The notes under the pieces: model-generated
The model's input: only the letters and a program-made list of their open reading frames with translations
What the model was told of the DNA's origin: nothing
Database searches by the model: none
Made by a program: the position numbers and the translations under genes
Source: Flavonifractor sp. An10
GTDB lineage: Bacteria > Bacillota > Clostridia > Oscillospirales > Oscillospiraceae
Direction of reading: 5' to 3'
Length of the DNA: 64,000 nucleotides
NCBI RefSeq assembly: GCF_002161215.1
Contig: NZ_NFMB01000003.1
Location: forward strand, 124,001 to 188,000
Shown: positions 20,274 through 39,988 of the stretch, one piece after another
Position numbering within the stretch: position 1 is the first letter of the stretch
Layout: each line of letters starts with the position of its first letter

Positions 20274-21827
20274 ATTCTTTGTGCGATCTATACACGACTG
20301 AGTAAGGAGGACGAAGACAAGCAGCAGAAGGAATCCGAGAGCATCCAGAACCAGAAGTCCCTGCTGATCCACTACGCCGTGGAGCGGGGGTGGGACATCT
20401 ACCATATCTATTGCGATGAGGATTACTCCGGGGCCGACAGTCTGCGGCCGGACTTCAACCGGATGATCCGAGCGGCCCAGGAGAAGAAGTTTCAAATCAT
20501 CCTCTGCAAGAGCCAGTCCCGGTTTACCCGAGACATGGAGCTAGTGGAGAAGTACATCCACGGCCTGTTTCCCCTCTGGGGAGTCCGATTCATCGCCGTG
20601 GCCGACAACGCCGACACGGAGATAAAGGGCAATAAAAAGGCCCGGCAGATCAATGGCCTCATCAATGAATGGTACCTGGAGGACCTGTCGGAAAACATCC
20701 GCATGGTCTTTGACATGAAGCGGCGGCAGGGGCAGTACATCGGCGGATTCCCCATCTACGGCTACCGGAAGGACCCGGACAACAAGGGGCATCTCCTGGT
20801 GGACCCGGAGGCGGCGGAGGTGGTGCGGCAAATCTTCCGCTGGTCCCTGGAGGGTCACGGCAAGCAGAGCATCGCCCACATGCTCAACGACCTGGGGGTG
20901 GTTAATCCTACCCGGTACAAGGCAGAGCGGGGCTGGGACAGCAACCACTTCTGCAAGCAGGATTTCGGACTCTGGAACAAAAATACCGTATGGCGGATCC
21001 TCCGCAATGAGATCTACACCGGCGTCATGGTGCAGGGGCGGACTAAAAAGGCCAGTTACAAATCCAAGGCTATCATCGTCATGCCCCGGGACCGCTGGTT
21101 CCGGGTGGAGGGCACCCACGAGGCCATCATCGACCGGGAGACCTTTGAGACCGTCCAGCGGAATCTGGACATCCGCTCTCGGGAAGACGGTACCGGCATG
21201 GTGCACCCTCTGGCGGGCCTTGTGAAGTGCATGGACTGCGGCGGCACCATGAGCAAGACCTCCAACGGGAAAAAGGGGAAAGCGCAGGTATATTATCTTC
21301 GCTGTAAGCTTTATGCCGACAGCGGGACAAAGAAGTTGTGTACCCGCCACTCCATTCGGCTGGACCGGCTGATAGAACTGGTTTCCCAACGCATCCGGGA
21401 CTACATCGGGGCGTACTACCATTTGGAGGAGCTGGAGCTCCCGCTGCCAAAGGACGACCACCGTGAGGCCCTGCTGCAGGAGCAGAAGACCCTGAGTGCC
21501 CAGTTGGAGAAGCGGAGCATGGCCCTGAAAAACCTGTACTTGGATAAGGTGTCCGGTGTGCTCAGTGAAGGACAGTTCGTGGAACTGAACCAGGATTTTC
21601 TGACGGAAAAAAGCCGCCTGGAGCGGCGGCTGGCCCAGATTGATCAGGAGTTCTCCGAGCAGGAGCAGCCCCGCAATCAGGAAGAGGTCATGGCCAAGGC
21701 CCGGGAGTTACTGGAACTTAAGGCCCTCCCCCGGGAGCTGGCGGTGATGCTGATCGAGAAAATCGAGATTGGTGAGCAGGACCCAGAAACAGGCCGGCAA
21801 GAGGTCAAAATACACTGGAAATTCTAA
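20274..21827 (+). CDS. Large serine recombinase (integrase), apparent AUU start
   Basis: A 517-residue serine integrase. The resolvase domain must begin upstream of any ATG: the frame reads ATT-CTT-TGT-GCG-ATC-TAT-ACA..., i.e. (M)LCAIYTRLSKEDEDKQ, with the catalytic Ser in YTRLS. GGAGGT lies 7 nt before the ATT at 20274, and an in-frame TGA directly upstream (20268-20270) forbids a longer start. A GTG start at 20379 would delete the active-site serine. Next come the recombinase domain (GFPIYGYRKDPDN...), a zinc ribbon (LVKCMDCGG...LRCKLYAD...C) and a C-terminal coiled coil. Its stop is 52 bp from attR, the usual place for the integrase of such an element. Confidence 0.88.
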   Translation: MLCAIYTRLSKEDEDKQQKESESIQNQKSLLIHYAVERGWDIYHIYCDEDYSGADSLRPDFNRMIRAAQEKKFQIILCKSQSRFTRDMELVEKYIHGLFPLWGVRFIAVADNADTEIKGNKKARQINGLINEWYLEDLSENIRMVFDMKRRQGQYIGGFPIYGYRKDPDNKGHLLVDPEAAEVVRQIFRWSLEGHGKQSIAHMLNDLGVVNPTRYKAERGWDSNHFCKQDFGLWNKNTVWRILRNEIYTGVMVQGRTKKASYKSKAIIVMPRDRWFRVEGTHEAIIDRETFETVQRNLDIRSREDGTGMVHPLAGLVKCMDCGGTMSKTSNGKKGKAQVYYLRCKLYADSGTKKLCTRHSIRLDRLIELVSQRIRDYIGAYYHLEELELPLPKDDHREALLQEQKTLSAQLEKRSMALKNLYLDKVSGVLSEGQFVELNQDFLTEKSRLERRLAQIDQEFSEQEQPRNQEEVMAKARELLELKALPRELAVMLIEKIEIGEQDPETGRQEVKIHWKF

Positions 21828-24373: not shown

Positions 24374-24403
24374 TTGACAGAATCCCTGCACGGCTCTTAT
24401 AAT
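24374..24403 (+). promoter_or_regulatory. Consensus sigma-A promoter of kamB-kamC
   Basis: TTGACA (24374-24379), 18-bp spacer, TATAAT (24398-24403); both hexamers are perfect. Confidence 0.8.
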
Positions 24404-24449
24404 GGCGGTGTCAAAACAACCAGAAACAGCATGGAAGGGAGGCCATGTT

Positions 24450-25448
24450 TTGAAACATCTGTTAGCGCCGCTGGTGGGGGATGCCTCGCCGGTGACGGTG
24501 ATCGGCCTGTGCAAGAACGCCGGCAAGACCACCGCCATGCGCCGCCTGATGGCGGAGCTGGGGGAGGAGCGCCTGGGCCTGACCTCGGTGGGCCGGGACG
24601 GCGAGGGCACCGACCTGGTGACGGGCACGGAGAAGCCCGACCTGTATGTCAAGCGGGGAGATCTGTTCGCCACGGCCAAGGGGATGCTCTCCCTGTGCGA
24701 CGCCACCCTGGAGGTGGTGGATCTCACCGACGTGATGACTCCCCTGGGCCCGGTGGCGGTATTCCGCACCCTGTCCGACGGGTATGTCCAGCTGGCGGGG
24801 CCCTCGGCGGCCGGGCAGCTGCCCCCCCTGACGAAGCGGTTCCAGGAGCTGGGCGCCCAGCGGGTACTCATTGACGGGGCCGCCGGGCGCAAGTCCCTGG
24901 CCGGCGCCGGGGTGGAGGGGGTGGCCCTGCTGTGCACCGGCGCGTCCCTGGATCGGGACATGGAGCTGGTGGTGGCGGAGACCGTCCACACCTGCTGGCT
25001 CTTCGCCCGGAAGCGGCCGGAAAACCCGGCCCTGTGCGCCGCCCTGGACGGGCAGGATGCCCGCTTCGCCCTCTTTACCCCAGAGGGGGAGCCGGTGGAG
25101 CTGCCCCTGGACGAGACCGGCGGGCCCAAGTGGGCCAAGCTGCCCCGGAAGCCTCTGGTGGTGTGGGCCGGCGGCGGCATCATGGATCCCCTGCTGAAAA
25201 CCCTGGCCCGGCGGGGGGCCCCCACCACCCTGGTGGCGGCGGACGCCACCCATGTGCTGGCCGGCCGCTCCGCCCTGGAGCAGTTCCTGCGCTGCGGCGG
25301 GGAGATGCGGGTGCGCAAGGAGCTGACCATCGCCGCCGTGGCGGCCAACCCCTGGTCGGCCTACGGCTGGCACTTTGAGCCGGACAAGTTTATCGCCGCC
25401 CTCCGGGAGGTCATCGACCTGCCGGTGGTCAACGTGAAGGAGGACTGA
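24450..25448 (+). CDS. kamB: Lysine 5,6-aminomutase reactivase subunit KamB
   Basis: A 332-residue protein, starting at TTG 24450 with GGGAGG 6 nt upstream. A P-loop VIGLCKNAGKTTAMRRL lies at about residues 16-32, followed by a GTPase-like VGRDGEG and a second half with VVWAGGGIMDPLLK. Genes of this type occur next to a MutS-like partner in lysine/ornithine fermentation clusters, where the pair is named KamB/KamC (or ORF-S type) and is thought to reactivate the B12-dependent aminomutase by exchanging damaged cofactor. Assignment rests on the partner gene 3 bp downstream and on the kam genes that follow, more than on the sequence itself. Confidence 0.8.
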   Translation: MKHLLAPLVGDASPVTVIGLCKNAGKTTAMRRLMAELGEERLGLTSVGRDGEGTDLVTGTEKPDLYVKRGDLFATAKGMLSLCDATLEVVDLTDVMTPLGPVAVFRTLSDGYVQLAGPSAAGQLPPLTKRFQELGAQRVLIDGAAGRKSLAGAGVEGVALLCTGASLDRDMELVVAETVHTCWLFARKRPENPALCAALDGQDARFALFTPEGEPVELPLDETGGPKWAKLPRKPLVVWAGGGIMDPLLKTLARRGAPTTLVAADATHVLAGRSALEQFLRCGGEMRVRKELTIAAVAANPWSAYGWHFEPDKFIAALREVIDLPVVNVKED

Positions 25449-25451
25449 ACC

Positions 25452-26951
25452 ATGGAACTGACCCATGAACTGCGGGAGAACGCGGGCTTTCAGTGGGTGC
25501 TGGAGCGCCTGAGCCCCATGTCTCCCTTCGGCAAGCAGGCCGCCCGCAATCCCCGCTGGTACGGCCCCGGCGACGAGGCCGCCCTGGAGGAGGAGCTGGA
25601 CAACGTGGCCCTGGCCATGGAGCTGTGGGCCGCCGGCGGTACCAGGCCCCAGCCGGTGGACAGCTGCGGCTGCGAGGCCCCCCGGGTGAACCCCGCCGAA
25701 CTGAAGGACTCCGCCGCCGCCCTGCGGGGGGTGACCCGGTGCCTGCCCCTGTTCCACGACATCCGGGGCTCCTTCGACCGGGATCCCGGCGCGCCCTTCG
25801 ACCTGGTGGAGCTGTTCGAGCTCAAGCACTTCCTGGTCACCCTGGAGCAGGTAGTGCAGGCCTATGCCAAGATGCCCCCCATGTCCGGCATCGCCTTCCC
25901 CTCCCTGGCCGACGCCCTGGAGCTGATGGATCCCGAGGGCCGGCGCCTGCCCACCTTCTCCGTGGTCAACTCCTACCACAACGACCTGGCCCCTCTGCGG
26001 GCCGAGAAGGCCAAGCTGGAGAAGGCCATCCGCATGACCCAGGAGGACAAGCGGGGCCCTCTGCTGGAAAAGCGCCGGGTTCTGGCGGTGGAGGAGGATA
26101 AGATCGAGCTGGAGGTGCGGCAGATGCTCACCCGGAAGCTCATGGTCTGGAAGGACGCCTTCCTGGCCAACATGGAGGCCCTGGGCCACCTGGATCTGAT
26201 CGTGGCCAAGGCCAAGCTGGCCCTGCGCTACCACTGCGTTCGGCCCGCCCTCAGCACCGACAAGACCATCTCCCTGAAGGGGGTGAGCCACCCCCAGGTG
26301 GCGGAGGAGCAGGCGGAGCGGGGCGAGCAGTTCACCGCCCTGGAGCTGGAGCTGGGCCCCGGCTGCACCGTCATCACCGGCGCCAACATGGGCGGCAAGA
26401 CCGTGTCCCTGCGCTCCACGGTGCTGTCCCTGCTGCTCTGCCAGTGCGGCTTCTTCGTGTTCGCTCAGTCCGCCCGGCTGCCCCTGTTCGACCGGGTGGA
26501 GCTGATTCTGGCCGACAGCGGCCCCGGCGCCGGCGGCCTGTCCTCCTTCGGCAAGGAGGTTCACCTGCTGGATCAGCTGCTCCGCAAGACCAGGGATGAG
26601 TTCTTCTTTGTGGCCCTGGACGAGTTCGCCCGGGGCACCAACCCCCAGGAGGGCGCCGCCCTGGCCCGGGCCCTGGTGCGCTACCTGGGCACCCTGGACT
26701 GCGTGGCCCTCATGACCACCCACTACGACGGCGTGTCCGACGTGGCCGGGGCCCACTACCAGGTGGCCGGCCTGGTGCGGGAGATCGACGGCGACGAGGG
26801 GGACGACCCCCGCAAGCGCATCGCCCGGCGGATGGACTACCGCCTGCTGCCCGCCCCGCCGGGGGCCCCCTGCCCCCGGGACGCCCTGCGGGTTTGCCGG
26901 CTGCTTAAGCTGGACGACGCCCTCATGGAGCTGTTCCAGGCCGACCTGTAA
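25452..26951 (+). CDS. kamC: MutS-like ATPase KamC of the lysine 5,6-aminomutase reactivase
   Basis: A 499-residue MutS-family ATPase that lacks the mismatch-binding domains. Helical core/clamp-like segments (about 1-290, with the long helix KAKLEKAIRMTQEDKRGPLLEKRR) precede the ATPase: Walker A ITGANMGGKTVSLRSTVLS (about 313-331), the ILADSGPG loop, Walker B FFVALDEFARGTNPQEGAALAR and the D-loop/switch LMTTHYDGVSD. In fermentation clusters this protein couples ATP hydrolysis to reactivation of KamDE, a chaperone role rather than DNA repair. kamB-kamC form their own transcription unit, ending at the terminator at 26988. Confidence 0.85.
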   Translation: MELTHELRENAGFQWVLERLSPMSPFGKQAARNPRWYGPGDEAALEEELDNVALAMELWAAGGTRPQPVDSCGCEAPRVNPAELKDSAAALRGVTRCLPLFHDIRGSFDRDPGAPFDLVELFELKHFLVTLEQVVQAYAKMPPMSGIAFPSLADALELMDPEGRRLPTFSVVNSYHNDLAPLRAEKAKLEKAIRMTQEDKRGPLLEKRRVLAVEEDKIELEVRQMLTRKLMVWKDAFLANMEALGHLDLIVAKAKLALRYHCVRPALSTDKTISLKGVSHPQVAEEQAERGEQFTALELELGPGCTVITGANMGGKTVSLRSTVLSLLLCQCGFFVFAQSARLPLFDRVELILADSGPGAGGLSSFGKEVHLLDQLLRKTRDEFFFVALDEFARGTNPQEGAALARALVRYLGTLDCVALMTTHYDGVSDVAGAHYQVAGLVREIDGDEGDDPRKRIARRMDYRLLPAPPGAPCPRDALRVCRLLKLDDALMELFQADL

Positions 26952-26987: not shown

Positions 26988-27030
26988 CCGGAAAGAGGGG
27001 GGAAATCTCCCTTCTTTCCGGCATTTTTTC
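26988..27030 (+). terminator. Terminator of kamC
   Basis: CCGGAAAGA pairs with TCTTTCCGG, with an inner GGG(A)/TCCC part; TTTTTT follows. Confidence 0.8.
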
Positions 27031-27056: not shown

Positions 27057-27085
27057 TTGACAAATTTAACTTGTGGGAGTATAGT
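27057..27085 (+). promoter_or_regulatory. Promoter of the lysine riboswitch / kce operon
   Basis: TTGACA (27057-27062), 17-bp spacer, TATAGT (27080-27085). The start site would be near 27092, about 18 nt before aptamer helix P1. Confidence 0.75.
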
Positions 27086-27109
27086 GTTCTTGTAAAAAAT
27101 AAATAATAC

Positions 27110-27285
27110 GCATGGATAGAGGCGCGGAGCGCAAGGTACCGGGACAATGACAAGGGCAGGCGAGCCCGATGTGTCCCGGGAATGTACGTTCCGCCGAAGG
27201 GGGACGTGAACCGCACAGCCCTCCCCCTGAGCCGCAGGCTCAGCGCTTGCGGATTGTCATGAGTAACATGAAGCGCTATTTGTGT
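27110..27285 (+). promoter_or_regulatory. Lysine riboswitch (L box) of the lysine-fermentation operon
   Basis: The aptamer shows the L-box landmarks in order: GATAGAGGCGC (27115-27125), CAAGGTAC, the core GCCGAAGG (27193-27200), the P4 arms GGGGG/CCCCC, and the 3' block TTGTCATGAGTAACATGAAGCGCTAT, equivalent to the UUGUCA...GGAGGGCUAU end of known lysine aptamers. P1 is 27110-27119 with 27276-27285. Unlike biosynthetic lysine switches, it controls lysine degradation (kce-kdd, possibly kamADE). A terminator follows directly and shares bases with P1. Confidence 0.9.
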
Positions 27286-27332
27286 CTGATCGGAGGCCGG
27301 AAGGTGTCCGCAGATGCAAGTAGTGTTTTTTT
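27280..27332 (+). terminator. Riboswitch-controlled terminator
   Basis: TTGTGTCTG (27280-27288) pairs with CAGATGCAA (27311-27319), and CGGA (27291-27294) with TCCG (27307-27310); T7 lies at 27326-27332. The first arm overlaps the 3' strand of P1 (27276-27285), so ligand-stabilised P1 should block this terminator. Confidence 0.8.
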
Positions 27333-27335
27333 GTG

Positions 27336-27348
27336 CATGAAGCGCTAT
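27336..27348 (+). repeat. Second copy of the riboswitch P1 3' strand
   Basis: CATGAAGCGCTAT, identical to 27267-27279 in the aptamer but placed beyond the terminator T tract. Confidence 0.7.
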
Positions 27349-27418
27349 CACGTTCCCTTGGGGTGGATGTTATTCTCTTGGCGGACGGGGTGGCGTTATT
27401 TTTACGAGGAGGCGTGTT

Positions 27419-28237
27419 ATGGAAAAGCTCATCATTACCGCGGCCATCTGCGGCGCAGAGGTCACCAAGGAAAACAACCCCGCGGTGCCCTACACCGTGG
27501 AGGAGATGGTTCGCGAGGCCAAGAGCGCGTTTGACGCGGGCGCGGCGGTCATCCACGTGCATGTCCGCTGGGACGACGGCACCCCCACCCAGGATCGCGA
27601 GCGGTTCCGGGTGATCCTGGACGCCATCAAGGAGGCCTGCCCCGGCGTGATCCTGATCCCCTCCACCGGCGGCGCCACCGGCATGACCCCCGAGGAGCGG
27701 CTCCAGCCCACCGAGCTCTTCCCCGAGATGGCCACCCTGGACTGCGGCACCTGCAACTTCGGCGACGATATCTTCGTCAACGACATGCCCACCATGCGGG
27801 CCTTCGGCAAGCGCATGATCGAGAACCACATCAAGCCCGAGTATGAGTGCTTCGAGATCGGCCACCTGGACACCATCCTCACCATGGCCAAGCGCGGCGA
27901 GGTTCCCGGCGGCCCCATGCAGTTCAACTTCGTGCTGGGCGTGTCCGGCTGCACCCCCGCCACCGCCGGCAACCTGGACTACTTAGTGCGGCAGCTGCCC
28001 GCCGGCTCCACCTGGACTGCCACCGGCATCGGCCGCAGCGCCTTCCCGCTGGCCGCCATCGCCATCGCCATGGGCGGCAACGTCCGGGTGGGCTTTGAGG
28101 ACAATATCTACCTGGGCAAGGGCCAGAAGGCCGCCTCCAACGGCGAGCTGGTGGCCAAGGTGGCCCGCATCGCCCACGAGCTGGGCCGTGAGATCGCCAC
28201 CCCCGAGGAGGCCCGCAAGATCCTGTCCCTGGCATAA
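27419..28237 (+). CDS. kce: 3-keto-5-aminohexanoate cleavage enzyme
   Basis: A 272-residue BKACE/DUF849 TIM-barrel enzyme. In lysine fermentation it condenses 3-keto-5-aminohexanoate with acetyl-CoA and splits it to acetoacetate and 3-aminobutyryl-CoA. Metal ligands are visible: His46 and His48 in AVIHVHVRWDDGT, with the glutamate of RVGFEDNIYL as the likely third ligand; the acidic Glu14 in ICGAEVTKENN is conserved. The length matches characterised Kce (about 275). SD GAGGAGG lies 6 nt upstream of the ATG. It is the first gene after the lysine riboswitch and is followed by kdd. Confidence 0.93.
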   Translation: MEKLIITAAICGAEVTKENNPAVPYTVEEMVREAKSAFDAGAAVIHVHVRWDDGTPTQDRERFRVILDAIKEACPGVILIPSTGGATGMTPEERLQPTELFPEMATLDCGTCNFGDDIFVNDMPTMRAFGKRMIENHIKPEYECFEIGHLDTILTMAKRGEVPGGPMQFNFVLGVSGCTPATAGNLDYLVRQLPAGSTWTATGIGRSAFPLAAIAIAMGGNVRVGFEDNIYLGKGQKAASNGELVAKVARIAHELGREIATPEEARKILSLA

Positions 28238-28327: not shown

Positions 28328-29371
28328 ATGCAGAAGAAAGGCAACAAGTACGGCACCCATCGCGTGATTGAGCCCAAGGGCCTGCTGACCCAGGCTGCCA
28401 AGAAGATCGACAACAACATGGACGAGATCTACTCCAACGAGATCCTGTGCGATGTGTCCGCGCTGAACATTGACTCCGCCTCCTTCACCCAGATCTACGA
28501 GGCCTGCGAGAAGGATCTGGCCCGTACCGAGCAGATGATTCTGGACATCGTGAACGAGCGCGGCAAGATGCAGAACCCCGTCACCGGCTCCGGCGGCATG
28601 TTCATCGGCACCGTCAAGGCCATCGGCGAGGATCTCCAGGGCAAGATCGACCTGAAGGTGGGCGACAAGATCGCCTCCCTGGTGTCCCTGTCCCTGACCC
28701 CCCTGAAGATCAACAAGATCAAGGCCATCCACCCCGAGATCGACCGCGTGGACGTGGACGCCCAGGCCATCCTGTTTGAGTCCGGCCTGTATGCCAAGCT
28801 GCCCGACGACATGAGCGAGGAGCTGGCCCTGGCCGCCCTGGACGTGGCCGGCGCTCCCGCCCAGACCGCCAAGCTGGTCAAGCCCGGCGACTCCGTGCTG
28901 ATCCTGGGCGGCGCCGGCAAGGGCGGCATGATGTGCTGCTACGAGGCCATGAAGCGCGTCGGCCCCACCGGCAACGTGGTGGCCCTGGTCATCTGCCAGG
29001 AGGACGCCGACCTGCTCAAGAGCATGAACCTGTGCCACCACGCCATCGTGGGCTCCGCCACCGAGCCTGTGGACGTGCTGGAGAAGTCCCTGGCCGCCAA
29101 CGGCGGTAAGGAGTACGACATCTCCATCCTGATCGTCAACGTGCCCGCCTGCGAGATGAGCGCCATCCTGCCCGTCCGCGACAACGGCACCGTGTACTGC
29201 TTCTCCATGGCCACCGACTTCGCCAAGGCGGCGCTGGGCGCCGAGGGCTGCGGCAAGGACGTCACCATGGTCATCGGCAACGGCTACACCAAGGATCACG
29301 CCGCCATCACCCTGGCCGAGCTCCGCGAGAATCCCCAGCTGAAGGAGTACTTCGAGAAGAAGTACCTGTAA
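28328..29371 (+). CDS. kdd: L-erythro-3,5-diaminohexanoate dehydrogenase
   Basis: A 347-residue NAD-dependent oxidative deaminase converting 3,5-diaminohexanoate to 3-keto-5-aminohexanoate plus ammonia. The nucleotide-binding glycine motif is VLILGGAGKGGMMCCYEAMKR (about residues 196-216), preceded by a GroES-like N-terminal part (GGMFIGTVKAIGEDL...DLKVGDKIASLVSLSLTP). Kdd is a family specific to lysine fermentation, so context and sequence agree. SD AGGAGG is 8 nt upstream. The last 52 bp of the gene recur perfectly 211 bp downstream. Confidence 0.93.
   Translation: MQKKGNKYGTHRVIEPKGLLTQAAKKIDNNMDEIYSNEILCDVSALNIDSASFTQIYEACEKDLARTEQMILDIVNERGKMQNPVTGSGGMFIGTVKAIGEDLQGKIDLKVGDKIASLVSLSLTPLKINKIKAIHPEIDRVDVDAQAILFESGLYAKLPDDMSEELALAALDVAGAPAQTAKLVKPGDSVLILGGAGKGGMMCCYEAMKRVGPTGNVVALVICQEDADLLKSMNLCHHAIVGSATEPVDVLEKSLAANGGKEYDISILIVNVPACEMSAILPVRDNGTVYCFSMATDFAKAALGAEGCGKDVTMVIGNGYTKDHAAITLAELRENPQLKEYFEKKYL
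29320..29371 (+). repeat. 52-bp direct repeat, copy 1 (3' end of kdd)
   Basis: The final 52 bp of kdd including the stop codon, identical to 29531-29582. Confidence 0.95.
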
Positions 29372-29530
29372 GGCAACTGCCCGACTTCCCCAGCTCGGCC
29401 CGCGCGTGAGCGCGCCGCGCCCTCTGGCGCGTCCAAGCGTTTTGCGAAGCAAAACCTTGCCGCAGGGGCAATTCACTTGCCCGAGGAAGTCATATCCGGG
29501 GCCCCCGCGCAATGGCACATTGCGTGGGGC
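29372..29530. other. 159-bp structured insert between duplicated kdd ends
   Basis: Non-coding. It contains hairpins such as GTTTTGC/GCAAAAC (about 29439-29456) and CCCCGCGCAATG/CATTGCGTGGGG (about 29504-29530), and an outer GACTTCC/GGAAGTC pair. No gene is seen. Confidence 0.6.
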
Positions 29531-29582
29531 GCTCCGCGAGAATCCCCAGCTGAAGGAGTACTTCGAGAAGAAGTACCTGTAA
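29531..29582 (+). repeat. 52-bp direct repeat, copy 2
   Basis: Perfect copy of the kdd 3' end (29320-29371). It runs directly into the first hairpin of multi-hairpin element copy C. Confidence 0.95.
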
Positions 29583-29766
29583 TCGAAAAAGCGGTGGAGC
29601 CGCTTTTTCGAGAGATTGCAGCCCGCCGCGCGCAAGTTTTGCCCGCTAAGGCGGACAAAACTCACACTTGCGGTCTGAGAAGTGTTTTTGACCACGCACA
29701 TGTCGCGGTCAAAAACGAAATCCTACTTGATTTGTGCCCTGCGGGCACAAACTCTGCGAGGCTTTT
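29583..29766 (+). repeat. Copy C of the three-copy multi-hairpin element
   Basis: Order: stem 4 (29583-29594 with 29600-29611, TCGAAAAAGCGG), stem 3 (29635-29646 with 29651-29662), stem 2 (29684-29693 with 29707-29716, loop containing CACATGTC), stem 1 (29731-29739 with 29743-29751, TTTGTGCCC) and the invariant tail AACTCTGCGAGGCTTTT at 29750-29766. The same order is found in copies A and B with different but still pairing stems. Here it lies inside the lysine operon, between kdd and kamA. Confidence 0.75.
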
Positions 29767-29937
29767 ATACGTACCATCCACAATCATTTCTTATGTGACA
29801 TTCCCGCAGCGGCGGCATCACCGCCGGGCGGCTGGGAATTCCTCCTCCCCAACCCTTCCCCGCCGTCCCCGCGGCCGGTTCCGTGTCTGTGGCTTCTAAT
29901 GTCTCCCCAAATCTGATTTAGAAAGGATGACCTTGTT

Positions 29938-31191
29938 ATGGTAGAGTCCCGCCGTAAGATCCTGTTCCCCAACGTGACCGATGAGGAGTGGAATGACTGG
30001 CACTGGCAGGTCAAGAACCGTATCGAGACTCTGGAAGATCTGAAGAAGTACATCGAGCTGACCCCCGAGGAAGAGGAAGGCGTCAAGGCCTGCCTGGGCA
30101 CCCTGCGCATGGCCATCACCCCCTACTACCTGTCCCTGATCCAGCCCGGTGATCCCCATGATCCCGTCCGTCTGCAGGCCATCCCCACCGCCAAGGAGCT
30201 GCATCAGGCCGACTCCGATCTGCTGGATCCCCTGCACGAGGATGAGGACTCCCCCGCTCCCGGTCTGACCCACCGCTATCCCGACCGCTGCCTGCTGCTG
30301 ATCACTGACCAGTGCTCCATGTACTGCCGTCACTGCACCCGCCGCCGCTTCGCCGGCCAGCACGACGCCGGCCTGCCCGTGGATCAGGTGGATCAGGCCA
30401 TCGAGTACATCCGCAACACTCCCCAGATCCGCGACGTGCTGCTGTCCGGCGGCGACGCCCTGCTGGTGAGCGACGAGCGCCTGGAGTACATCATCGCCAA
30501 GCTGCGTGAGATCCCCCACGTGGAGATCGTCCGCATCGGCTCCCGCACCCCCGTGGTGCTGCCTCAGCGCATCACTCCCGAGCTGTGCAACATGCTGAAG
30601 AAGTATCACCCCATCTGGCTGAACACCCACTTCAACCACCCCAACGAGATCACCCCCGAGTCCGCCAAGGCCTGCGCCATGCTGGCCGACGCCGGTATCC
30701 CGCTGGGCAACCAGAGCGTGCTGCTGGCCGGCATCAATGACTGCGTCTACACCATGAAGAAGCTGGTCAACGAGCTGGTTCGCATCCGCGTGCGTCCCTA
30801 CTACATCTATCAGTGCGACCTGTCCATGGGCCTGGAGCACTTCCGTACTCCCGTCAGCAAGGGCATCGAGATCATCGAGGCTCTGCGCGGCCACACCTCC
30901 GGCTTCTGCGTGCCCACCTTCGTGGTGGACGCCCCGGGCGGCGGCGGCAAGACCCCCGTTATGCCCCAGTACGTCATCTCCCAGACCCCGCACAAGGTCA
31001 TCCTGCGCAACTACGAGGGCGTTATCACCACCTACACCGAGCCCGAGCACTACACCGACTGCCAGTGCGACTACTGCACCGGCAAGAAGAAGAAGGAGCT
31101 CATGGGCGTGGCCGGCCTGGAGCGCGGTCAGGCGCTGTCCATGGAGCCCGCCAACCTGGAGCGTCATAAGCGCTCCCACCACGAGGAATAA
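29938..31191 (+). CDS. kamA: L-lysine 2,3-aminomutase
   Basis: A 417-residue radical-SAM, PLP-dependent enzyme making L-beta-lysine from L-lysine, the first step of lysine fermentation. The [4Fe-4S] cysteines are C126-x3-C130-x2-C133 (CSMYCRHCTRRRF), followed by the SAM-binding SGGDALL. The PLP lysine is in the glycine-rich APGGGGKTPVMPQYV near residue 335. A Cys pair near the end (CQCDYC) fits the zinc site of clostridial KamA. SD AGAAAGGATG precedes the ATG. It is separated from kdd by 566 bp of repeats, yet no clear promoter is seen there, so read-through from the riboswitch operon is likely. Confidence 0.96.
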   Translation: MVESRRKILFPNVTDEEWNDWHWQVKNRIETLEDLKKYIELTPEEEEGVKACLGTLRMAITPYYLSLIQPGDPHDPVRLQAIPTAKELHQADSDLLDPLHEDEDSPAPGLTHRYPDRCLLLITDQCSMYCRHCTRRRFAGQHDAGLPVDQVDQAIEYIRNTPQIRDVLLSGGDALLVSDERLEYIIAKLREIPHVEIVRIGSRTPVVLPQRITPELCNMLKKYHPIWLNTHFNHPNEITPESAKACAMLADAGIPLGNQSVLLAGINDCVYTMKKLVNELVRIRVRPYYIYQCDLSMGLEHFRTPVSKGIEIIEALRGHTSGFCVPTFVVDAPGGGGKTPVMPQYVISQTPHKVILRNYEGVITTYTEPEHYTDCQCDYCTGKKKKELMGVAGLERGQALSMEPANLERHKRSHHEE

Positions 31192-39798: not shown

Positions 39799-39842
39799 GA
39801 TGAGTGTAAAATATGGCATCAACTTCATACCGCCGGATGATG

Positions 39843-39988
39843 GGGCCGAGAGAGGGCGGGAAACCGCCGCCGAAGGGGCAAGCGCAGGGATCTCTCAGGC
39901 AGAAGGATCGGCCCCGGACGGGACTCTGGAAAGCGGACGGCAGTCCGCGCCGACGGGGGCAAAACTCTCAGGCAACCCAACAGAGGCG
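39843..39988 (+). promoter_or_regulatory. Tandem glycine riboswitch
   Basis: Two gcvT-type aptamers in series. Aptamer 1 has GAGAGAGGGCGG, GCCGAAGGGGCAA and ATCTCTCAGGCA; aptamer 2 has GACTCTGGAAAGCGG, CGCCGACGGGGGCAA and ACTCTCAGGCAA, with GCAGAAGGATCGG as linker. Glycine binding normally turns such leaders on. They sit directly before the glycine cleavage operon, with a terminator between. Confidence 0.95.

What the first reader, a model, noticed from the sequence alone, without database searches (positions are those of the whole stretch)
27110..27332. Lysine riboswitch wired as an ON switch for lysine fermentation
A clear L-box aptamer precedes kce-kdd (and the downstream kamADE). The P1 helix is 27110-27119 with 27276-27285, and the terminator's 5' arm is 27280-27288. 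The shared bases 27280-27285 mean that lysine-stabilised P1 and the terminator exclude each other, so lysine should relieve termination. Classic lysine riboswitches repress biosynthesis or uptake. Catabolic, activating lysine switches have, as far as I recall, only been suggested by comparative work, not characterised in detail.
Basis: partly seen in the sequence, partly recalled or inferred. Interest (0 to 1): 0.9.

Follow-up and report, generated by a model that had tools for sequence, protein, structure and literature searches.

The report
Lysine ON-switch with two stop signals
In front of the lysine-fermentation genes of a gut bacterium lies an RNA lysine sensor that should turn the genes on when lysine is present; the piece that closes the sensor is repeated further on, so one sensor may control two stop signals in a row.

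Summary
The terminator's 5' arm is longer than stated (27273-27288) and takes in all ten bases of the P1 3' strand, so P1 and terminator exclude each other: an ON arrangement. Of 80 kce loci from named genomes, 77 have a lysine aptamer upstream; 72 of 77 pass a strict test for the same arrangement (shuffles 45 of 1540). The genome's other lysine aptamer, before a substrate-binding protein gene, looks wired as an OFF switch. Activating catabolic lysine riboswitches are already in print (PMC5584792). 35 of 77 leaders have such a copy; its P5-like part pairs with the leader's own P5 5' strand in 32 of 35. One aptamer may thus close twice and control two terminators in series. That lysine relieves the second terminator is inferred; equilibrium folding speaks against it in 30 of 36.

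The parts
26988..27021 (+). terminator-like hairpin after kamC; separates the leader from the upstream genes
   Evidence: 15 pairs, T-rich tail
27057..27085 (+). sigma-70-like promoter TTGACA-17-TATAGT
   Evidence: 11 of 12 consensus matches; 1 found against a mean of 0.4 in shuffles
27109..27286 (+). lysine riboswitch aptamer (RF00168)
   Evidence: 66.6 bits, E 2.5e-17
27110..27119 (+). P1 5' strand
27258..27261 (+). P5 5' strand (CATG)
27267..27279 (+). copy 1 of the 3' closing module: P5 3' strand, J5/1, first bases of the P1 3' strand
27276..27285 (+). P1 3' strand
27273..27332 (+). terminator T1: stem 27273-27288/27311-27326, U-run 27326-27332; its 5' arm contains the whole P1 3' strand
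27320..27326 (+). part of the T1 3' arm that can pair with copy 2 (27342-27348) when P1 holds copy 1: possible relay antiterminator
27336..27348 (+). copy 2 of the 3' closing module (CATGAAGCGCTAT)
   Evidence: invariant in 15 Flavonifractor-type rows
27341..27403 (+). terminator T2: stem 27341-27355/27383-27397 with one mismatch, tail TTATTTTT (27396-27403); its 5' arm is copy 2
27406..27412 (+). Shine-Dalgarno-like GAGGAGG
   Evidence: sequence
27419..28237 (+). kce
   Evidence: NF052387, 413 bits over cut-off 382
28328..29371 (+). kdd
   Evidence: NF052381, 273 bits over cut-off 200
29938..31191 (+). kamA, lysine 2,3-aminomutase
   Evidence: TIGR03820
31284..32849 (+). kamD, lysine 5,6-aminomutase alpha
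   Evidence: NF052384
32846..33634 (+). kamE, lysine 5,6-aminomutase beta
   Evidence: NF052385

Best explanation
A lysine riboswitch that turns on the lysine-fermentation operon by antitermination, with two decision points served by one aptamer. First decision: the lysine-bound aptamer holds the P1 3' strand (copy 1) and terminator T1 cannot form; without lysine T1 forms and transcription stops. Second decision: a polymerase that passes T1 transcribes a second copy of the closing module. With T1 folded away inside P5, copy 2 can pair with the same P1 (and in most leaders P5) 5' strands and re-close the aptamer, which competes with terminator T2, whose 5' arm is copy 2. If instead P1 still holds copy 1, the freed T1 3' arm can pair with copy 2 and hinder T2 (relay). 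Two terminators in series relieved by the same ligand would give low leak and a steeper response. Shown by computation: aptamer, P1/T1 exclusion, copy 2, T2, conserved pairing potential of copy 2. Inferred: lysine binding, termination, and that lysine relieves T2. My estimates: ON logic at T1 about 0.9; lysine-controlled second stage about 0.55.
For: Aptamer. ON topology: 72 of 77 strict, shuffles 45 of 1540; 77 of 77 loose, shuffles 91 of 770. Of 21 parsed comparison L-boxes 2 pass the strict test, one of them (L016) itself a kal-kce leader. Copy 2 in 35 of 77 leaders and 0 of 21 comparison L-boxes; T2 strict in 32 of 35, shuffles 10 of 700. In the 21-row alignment T1's covariation score is reached by 1 of 500 shuffles and T2's by 0 of 500, with 23 cells changed on both sides. 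Copy 2's P5-like tetramer pairs 4 of 4 with the leader's own P5 5' strand in 32 of 35, at most 3 of 35 at slides from -14 to +2; between lineages pairs change on both sides (A-U to G-C in 7, G-C to C-G in 8 of 36). In 15 Flavonifractor-type rows the CATGA of copy 2, outside the T2 stem, is invariant, while 0 of 16 T2-loop columns are. Before T2 completes, the P1 pairs with copy 2 exceed a mean probability of 0.5 at some length in 28 of 36 leaders, and P5 pairs with copy 2 as well in 22 of 36. With P1 held on copy 1, the relay exceeds 0.5 in 34 of 36. In vivo: lysine-pathway proteins about 10-fold up on lysine in Intestinimonas AF211 (PMC4697335, passages); three Intestinimonas records here (L075, L081, L092) carry copy 2.
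Against: At full length, with P1 held on copy 1, equilibrium folding still prefers T2 in 30 of 36 leaders, so relief of T2 would have to be kinetic or ligand-driven. In the window the re-closed form dominates only in RNAs ending at 27352-27356 and is 0.06 or less from 27360 on. P1 with copy 2 is shorter than with copy 1 in the window and most leaders (5 against 10 pairs in the window; only 4 in the L107-type leaders and L139). Within the 21-row alignment the pairs of copy 2 with P1 and P5 hardly vary and show no covariation; the two-sided changes come from few lineages. T1's count of pairs changed on both sides is no better than shuffles (272 of 500 as high), and related rows inflate such scores. 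Copy 2 misses full P5 pairing in L083, L090, L096, and in L112, L130, L133 the fold closes P1 but not P5 with copy 2. AF211's own leader was not examined, and its induction could have another cause.
Confidence: 0.6

Rival explanations
1. Plain one-stage ON lysine riboswitch; T2 is a constitutive or backup attenuator that arose by tandem duplication of the expression platform, and copy 2 is conserved only as its 5' arm.
For: Tandem duplication is plain in L133 (51 nt at 92%). T2 wins at equilibrium in 30 of 36 even with P1 held. 42 of 77 related leaders lack copy 2 by the test used (two of these, L087 and L091, have a degenerate copy seen by eye).
Against: The P5-like part lies outside the T2 stem in the Flavonifractor group and is invariant there; it matches the own P5 5' strand across CATG, CGTC and CATC lineages. 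A lysine-blind second terminator would blunt the switch (inference).
Confidence: 0.3
2. Relay only: when P1 holds copy 1 the freed T1 3' arm pairs with copy 2 and blocks T2; copy 2 does not close the aptamer.
For: Relay pairing over 0.5 in 34 of 36 before T2 completes. A separate leader, L058, has a P1-excluding hairpin without a U-run and a later terminator; with P1 held its best fold (-80.0 against -80.8 free) has an antiterminator in place of the terminator. In four Oscillibacter-type leaders (L077, L082-L084) T1 keeps its stem but its U-run is broken.
Against: It does not need the P5-like CATG of copy 2. The related leader L062 keeps its terminator with P1 held. Relay loses to T2 at full length in 30 of 36.
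Confidence: 0.35
3. OFF switch: lysine promotes termination, as in biosynthesis leaders.
For: B. subtilis and E. coli lysine riboswitches act as OFF switches (PMC11477304 passages).
Against: T1's 5' arm contains the whole P1 3' strand, so P1 and T1 cannot coexist. The genome's other L-box shows the OFF wiring for contrast.
Confidence: 0.04

Closest known systems
Lysine riboswitches upstream of kal/kce (C. sticklandii, F. nucleatum, Thermoanaerobacter), PMC5584792
   Same: Same aptamer family, same pathway, stated to be positively regulated (passages read)
   Different: The passages seen describe no expression platform, repeated closing strand or second terminator
Lysine OFF riboswitches of B. 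subtilis and E. coli (PMC11477304 passages; lysC details recalled)
   Same: Same aptamer family
   Different: OFF: lysine lowers expression
Glycine riboswitch ON switch before the gcv genes (PMC11477304 passages)
   Same: Amino-acid riboswitch activating breakdown of its ligand
   Different: Different aptamer
c-di-GMP riboswitch Bc1 (PMC11218506, abstract and passages)
   Same: One aptamer followed by two intrinsic terminators
   Different: The passages seen mention no repeated aptamer strand, and it did not respond to c-di-GMP in vitro
Tandem 'pseudo-cooperative' riboswitches incl. 14 double lysine riboswitches (PMC9481103, passages)
   Same: Terminator-based, repeated sensing of one ligand
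   Different: Those have two complete aptamers; here one aptamer with two 3' closing strands. I saw no one-aptamer, two-platform class in the passages and the flattened Table 1
'Partially double' T-boxes (Vitreschak 2008, recalled only; the search gave nothing on it)
   Same: Duplicated terminator part after one sensor, as I recall
   Different: tRNA sensor

Membership tests
Lysine riboswitch (RF00168) | covariance-model score over the curated cut-off | tested here: met
   66.6 bits against 30, full model
Lysine riboswitch (RF00168) | five-helix aptamer closed by P1 | tested here: met
   MFE of 27108-27288 shows P1 and four further helices
Lysine riboswitch (RF00168) | binds L-lysine selectively | not testable with these tools
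   no binding assay
Transcriptional ON riboswitch (antitermination) | ligand-stabilised helix excludes the terminator | tested here: met
   P1 3' strand 27276-27285 lies inside T1 5' arm 27273-27288; three-way change
Transcriptional ON riboswitch (antitermination) | more read-through with ligand | not testable with these tools
   needs a transcription assay
Tandem (doublet) riboswitch | two complete aptamers | tested here: not met
   one RF00168 hit in the leader; only the 3' module is repeated
One aptamer with two closing strands (proposed here) | copy 2 can pair with the P1 and P5 5' strands | tested here: met
   P5: 32 of 35 fully; P1: at least 4 pairs in 36 of 36; favoured before T2 for P1 in 28 and for both in 22 of 36
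One aptamer with two closing strands (proposed here) | T2 is relieved by lysine | tested here: inconclusive
   relay before T2 in 34 of 36 with P1 held, but T2 preferred at full length in 30 of 36

The most novel reading that the evidence does not exclude
A riboswitch architecture in which a single aptamer has two alternative 3' closing strands, each the 5' arm of its own terminator, so that one sensor takes two lysine decisions in sequence; it arose more than once by tandem duplication of the expression platform together with the aptamer's 3' end.
Probability: 0.5. Interest if true: 0.78.

Novelty: new variant of a known kind. Interest (0 to 1): 0.62.

Why it matters
It gives a concrete, tractable example (Flavonifractor plautii ATCC 29863 carries one, L076) of an amino-acid riboswitch that should activate breakdown of its ligand, in relatives of a gut bacterium known to make butyrate from lysine (PMC4697335). 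If the second stage is lysine-controlled, it shows how a riboswitch can gain steepness and tightness without a second aptamer, by repeating only the strand that closes the first one.

Tried and rejected
Whole-window Rfam scan at gathering threshold listed no lysine hit; the small-region scan and own-genome search did.

The loose terminator test also accepts 91 of 770 shuffles, so a strict stem test was added: T1 misses L126, L128, L131, L132, L141; T2 misses L096, L136, L139. In the loose test T2 is missing in L077 and L136. The P5 pairing script was off by one base and its pair counts are void; one search replaces it. The tail counts are not used, because the stem routine ran on into the U-run. 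The stage energy gaps (4.6-21.4 kcal/mol at T1, 0.0-22.0 at T2) overlap in range but rest on unliganded energies and decide nothing.

Exact-pattern searches for double copies: in 400 family genomes 18 matched, namely all 10 same-genus genomes of the sample (own included), one further leader (G276) and 7 that look like coding DNA by eye; the reversed-pattern control gave 4 matches in 3 genomes. In 375 order genomes a second pattern gave one match, coding by its look. The patterns are narrow and give no census.

The kce tree needs 7 changes of the copy-2 label, at least 6 forced by well-supported branches, but gains and losses are not told apart and kce may have moved between genomes; I use it only as a hint of recurrence.

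Papers: Rodionov 2003 is not held. The identity of reference 44 in PMC5584792 was not seen. Searches in which I saw no account of a repeated aptamer closing strand; they cover one open-access library, and of their lists I opened only PMC5584792, PMC9337991, PMC11477304, PMC9481103, PMC11218506 and PMC4697335, by passages.

Full report
WHAT WAS CLAIMED AND WHAT IS THERE. The finding claims a lysine riboswitch at 27110-27332 wired as an ON switch before lysine-fermentation genes. RF00168 matches 27109-27286 over its full length at 66.6 bits (E 2.5e-17); the same site appears in the search of the whole genome, which has one more lysine aptamer on another contig. The leader has its own promoter-like site (27057-27085), behind a terminator-like hairpin at 26988-27021. 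NCBIfam names the genes that follow as kce, kdd, lysine 2,3-aminomutase and both subunits of lysine 5,6-aminomutase, and the gene before the hairpin as the KamC reactivase. The gap kdd-kamA (29372-29937) holds no promoter-like site and one terminator-like site on the + strand, no more than shuffles give, so whether kamADE is read from this leader is open.

ON LOGIC. P1 is 27110-27119 with 27276-27285. Terminator T1 pairs 27273-27288 with 27311-27326, has an inner stem, and ends in seven U (27326-27332). The T1 5' arm contains the whole P1 3' strand. In equilibrium folding along the transcript, P1 is 0.94-0.99 for RNAs ending at 27288-27316, 0.40 at 27320 and 0.00 from 27324, where T1 is 1.00. 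Lysine would have to hold P1 through that step (inference). In an alignment of 21 leaders (window, 14 further Flavonifractor-type and 6 Oscillibacter-type rows) T1 is paired in 90.6% of cells; its covariation score is reached by 1 of 500 shuffles, but its number of pairs changed on both sides by 272 of 500. P1 is paired in 100%. The base of alignment column 185 pairs with column 9 in P1 (A-U 18, G-U 1, G-C 2) and with column 226 in T1 (U-A 14, U-G 5, C-G 2), a three-way change expected of mutually exclusive helices.

BREADTH. 77 of 80 have a lysine aptamer in the held upstream DNA: 65 by a motif script (L125's end was set by hand) and 12 by RF00168. The three without are L066 (a second kce of F. 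plautii), L103 (only 402 bases upstream held) and L145 (Porphyromonas). RF00168 was run on 20 of the 65 motif hits and confirmed 20 of 20. A strict stem test finds T1 with the aptamer's 3' strand as 5' arm in 72 of 77 (shuffles 45 of 1540); the loose test in 77 of 77 (shuffles 91 of 770). As comparison, 31 L-box loci were taken (30 best and L001); 21 could be parsed and 10 were dropped because the motif script failed on them. 2 of 21 pass, L008 and L016; L016 is a kal-kce leader itself. The own genome's other L-box (L001) precedes a gene that reads like a substrate-binding protein; in the fold its P1 3' strand pairs with the 5' arm of a separate terminator, the OFF arrangement. Of 12 kce loci from elsewhere in the class (1.5 kb held on each side), 3 have RF00168 hits (L058, L060, L062); L060, cut at the locus end, has the direct ON stem, L058 a P1-excluding hairpin followed by a separate terminator.

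The 13 bases CATGAAGCGCTAT at 27267-27279 recur exactly at 27336-27348, after T1's U-run. They belong to the aptamer's 3' closing module: P5 3' strand, J5/1, P1 3' strand. Copy 2 is the 5' arm of a second terminator-like stem, T2 (27341-27397, tail TTATTTTT), which ends just before the ribosome site. In the genus search (20 genomes, 19 with a match, 21 matches) the 18 kce loci with this leader in view all carry copy 2 by eye; the other three are a kce without it (L037), a 43% relative (L053) and a cut contig (L050). Among the 77 leaders, 35 carry copy 2 at one mismatch or less, two more (L087, L091) a degenerate one seen by eye, and 0 of 21 comparison L-boxes do. T2 passes the strict test in 32 of 35 (shuffles 10 of 700). 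In the 21-row alignment T2 is paired in 92.8% of cells, has 23 cells changed on both sides and a covariation score that 0 of 500 shuffles reach. Related rows inflate such scores.

IS COPY 2 MORE THAN A TERMINATOR ARM? Three lines say so. First, its P5-like tetramer pairs fully with the P5 5' strand of its own leader in 32 of 35; slid by -14 to +2 bases the count is at most 3. Between lineages the pairs change on both sides: position 2 A-U in 29 and G-C in 7, position 4 G-C or G-U in 25 and C-G in 8 of 36 (3 unpaired). Within the 21-row alignment these pairs hardly vary and so say nothing. Second, in 15 Flavonifractor-type rows the CATGA of copy 2, which is outside the T2 stem, is invariant, whereas 0 of 16 T2-loop columns and 4 of 17 T2 3'-arm columns are. 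Third, in RNAs that end after copy 2 but before the T2 3' arm, P1 pairs with copy 2 at a mean probability over 0.5 at some length in 28 of 36 leaders, with P5 also on copy 2 in 22 of them (structures, T1 looped out inside P5). The exceptions: L083, L090, L096, L112, L130, L133 close P1 but not P5 with copy 2, and in 8 leaders P1 does not reach 0.5. In the window this form lasts only from 27352 to 27356 (0.83-0.86).

HOW IT MAY WORK. Without lysine, T1 forms; polymerases that slip past meet T2. With lysine at T1, P1 holds copy 1, the T1 3' arm is free, and it can pair with copy 2 (over 0.5 in 34 of 36 before T2 completes), hindering T2. If lysine binds only after T1, copy 2 can re-close the aptamer and compete with T2. 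Against this: with P1 held on copy 1, equilibrium at full length still favours T2 in 30 of 36. So relief of T2 needs kinetics or the binding energy of lysine, neither of which is modelled here. The relay-like design in L058 does hold at full length; that in L062 does not.

ORIGIN. In L133 the two copies extend over 51 nt at 92% identity, from the P5 loop to the end of T1, while in the window only the 13-nt module is alike. This points to separate tandem duplications (inference). The kce tree agrees with recurrence but cannot tell gain from loss.

PHYSIOLOGY AND PRIOR WORK. Intestinimonas AF211 raises its lysine-pathway proteins about tenfold on lysine compared with glucose plus acetate, except 3-aminobutyryl-CoA ammonia-lyase, which was not detected (PMC4697335, passages). 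Its own leader was not examined; three Intestinimonas records here carry copy 2 (L075, L081, L092). PMC5584792 (passages) already reports lysine riboswitches before kal/kce and calls them activating, so the catabolic ON switch is not a new idea. One aptamer with two terminators has been described for a c-di-GMP riboswitch that did not respond to its ligand in vitro (PMC11218506, passages). I saw no account of a repeated aptamer closing strand in the searches listed under Tried and rejected, which cover one open-access library.

VERDICT. Observation confirmed; ON interpretation supported; a new variant of a known kind because of the repeated closing module and second terminator. The second stage is the part worth an experiment.

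Noticed in passing
window 39837-39987: Two glycine riboswitch aptamers in tandem (60.2 and 36 bits) inside the 5' part of a long frame that reads like gcvT (by eye): another amino-acid switch in the same window.
   Followed up: no
window 24402-26951: KamC reactivase and the gene before it lie upstream of the riboswitch, behind a terminator-like hairpin, so they seem to be outside its control.
   Followed up: partly
L063 1179-1390 and L064 3101-3306: Cobalamin riboswitches beside kce in two loci without a lysine riboswitch hit in the held DNA; lysine 5,6-aminomutase needs B12 (recalled).
   Followed up: no
L066 and L037: A kce gene without a lysine riboswitch in the held upstream DNA, in F. plautii (L066; L076 is the one with it) and in a same-genus genome (L037; L052 is the one with it).
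   Followed up: no
L139, downstream of copy 2: The T2 loop seems to contain a long inverted repeat (by eye), which may be a small inserted element.
   Followed up: no
L077, L082-L084: In Oscillibacter-type leaders T1 keeps its stem but its U-run is broken, so T2 may be the main terminator there.
   Followed up: partly
window 20379-21827: Reading frame that looks like a large serine recombinase (by eye from the translation, not searched).
   Followed up: no
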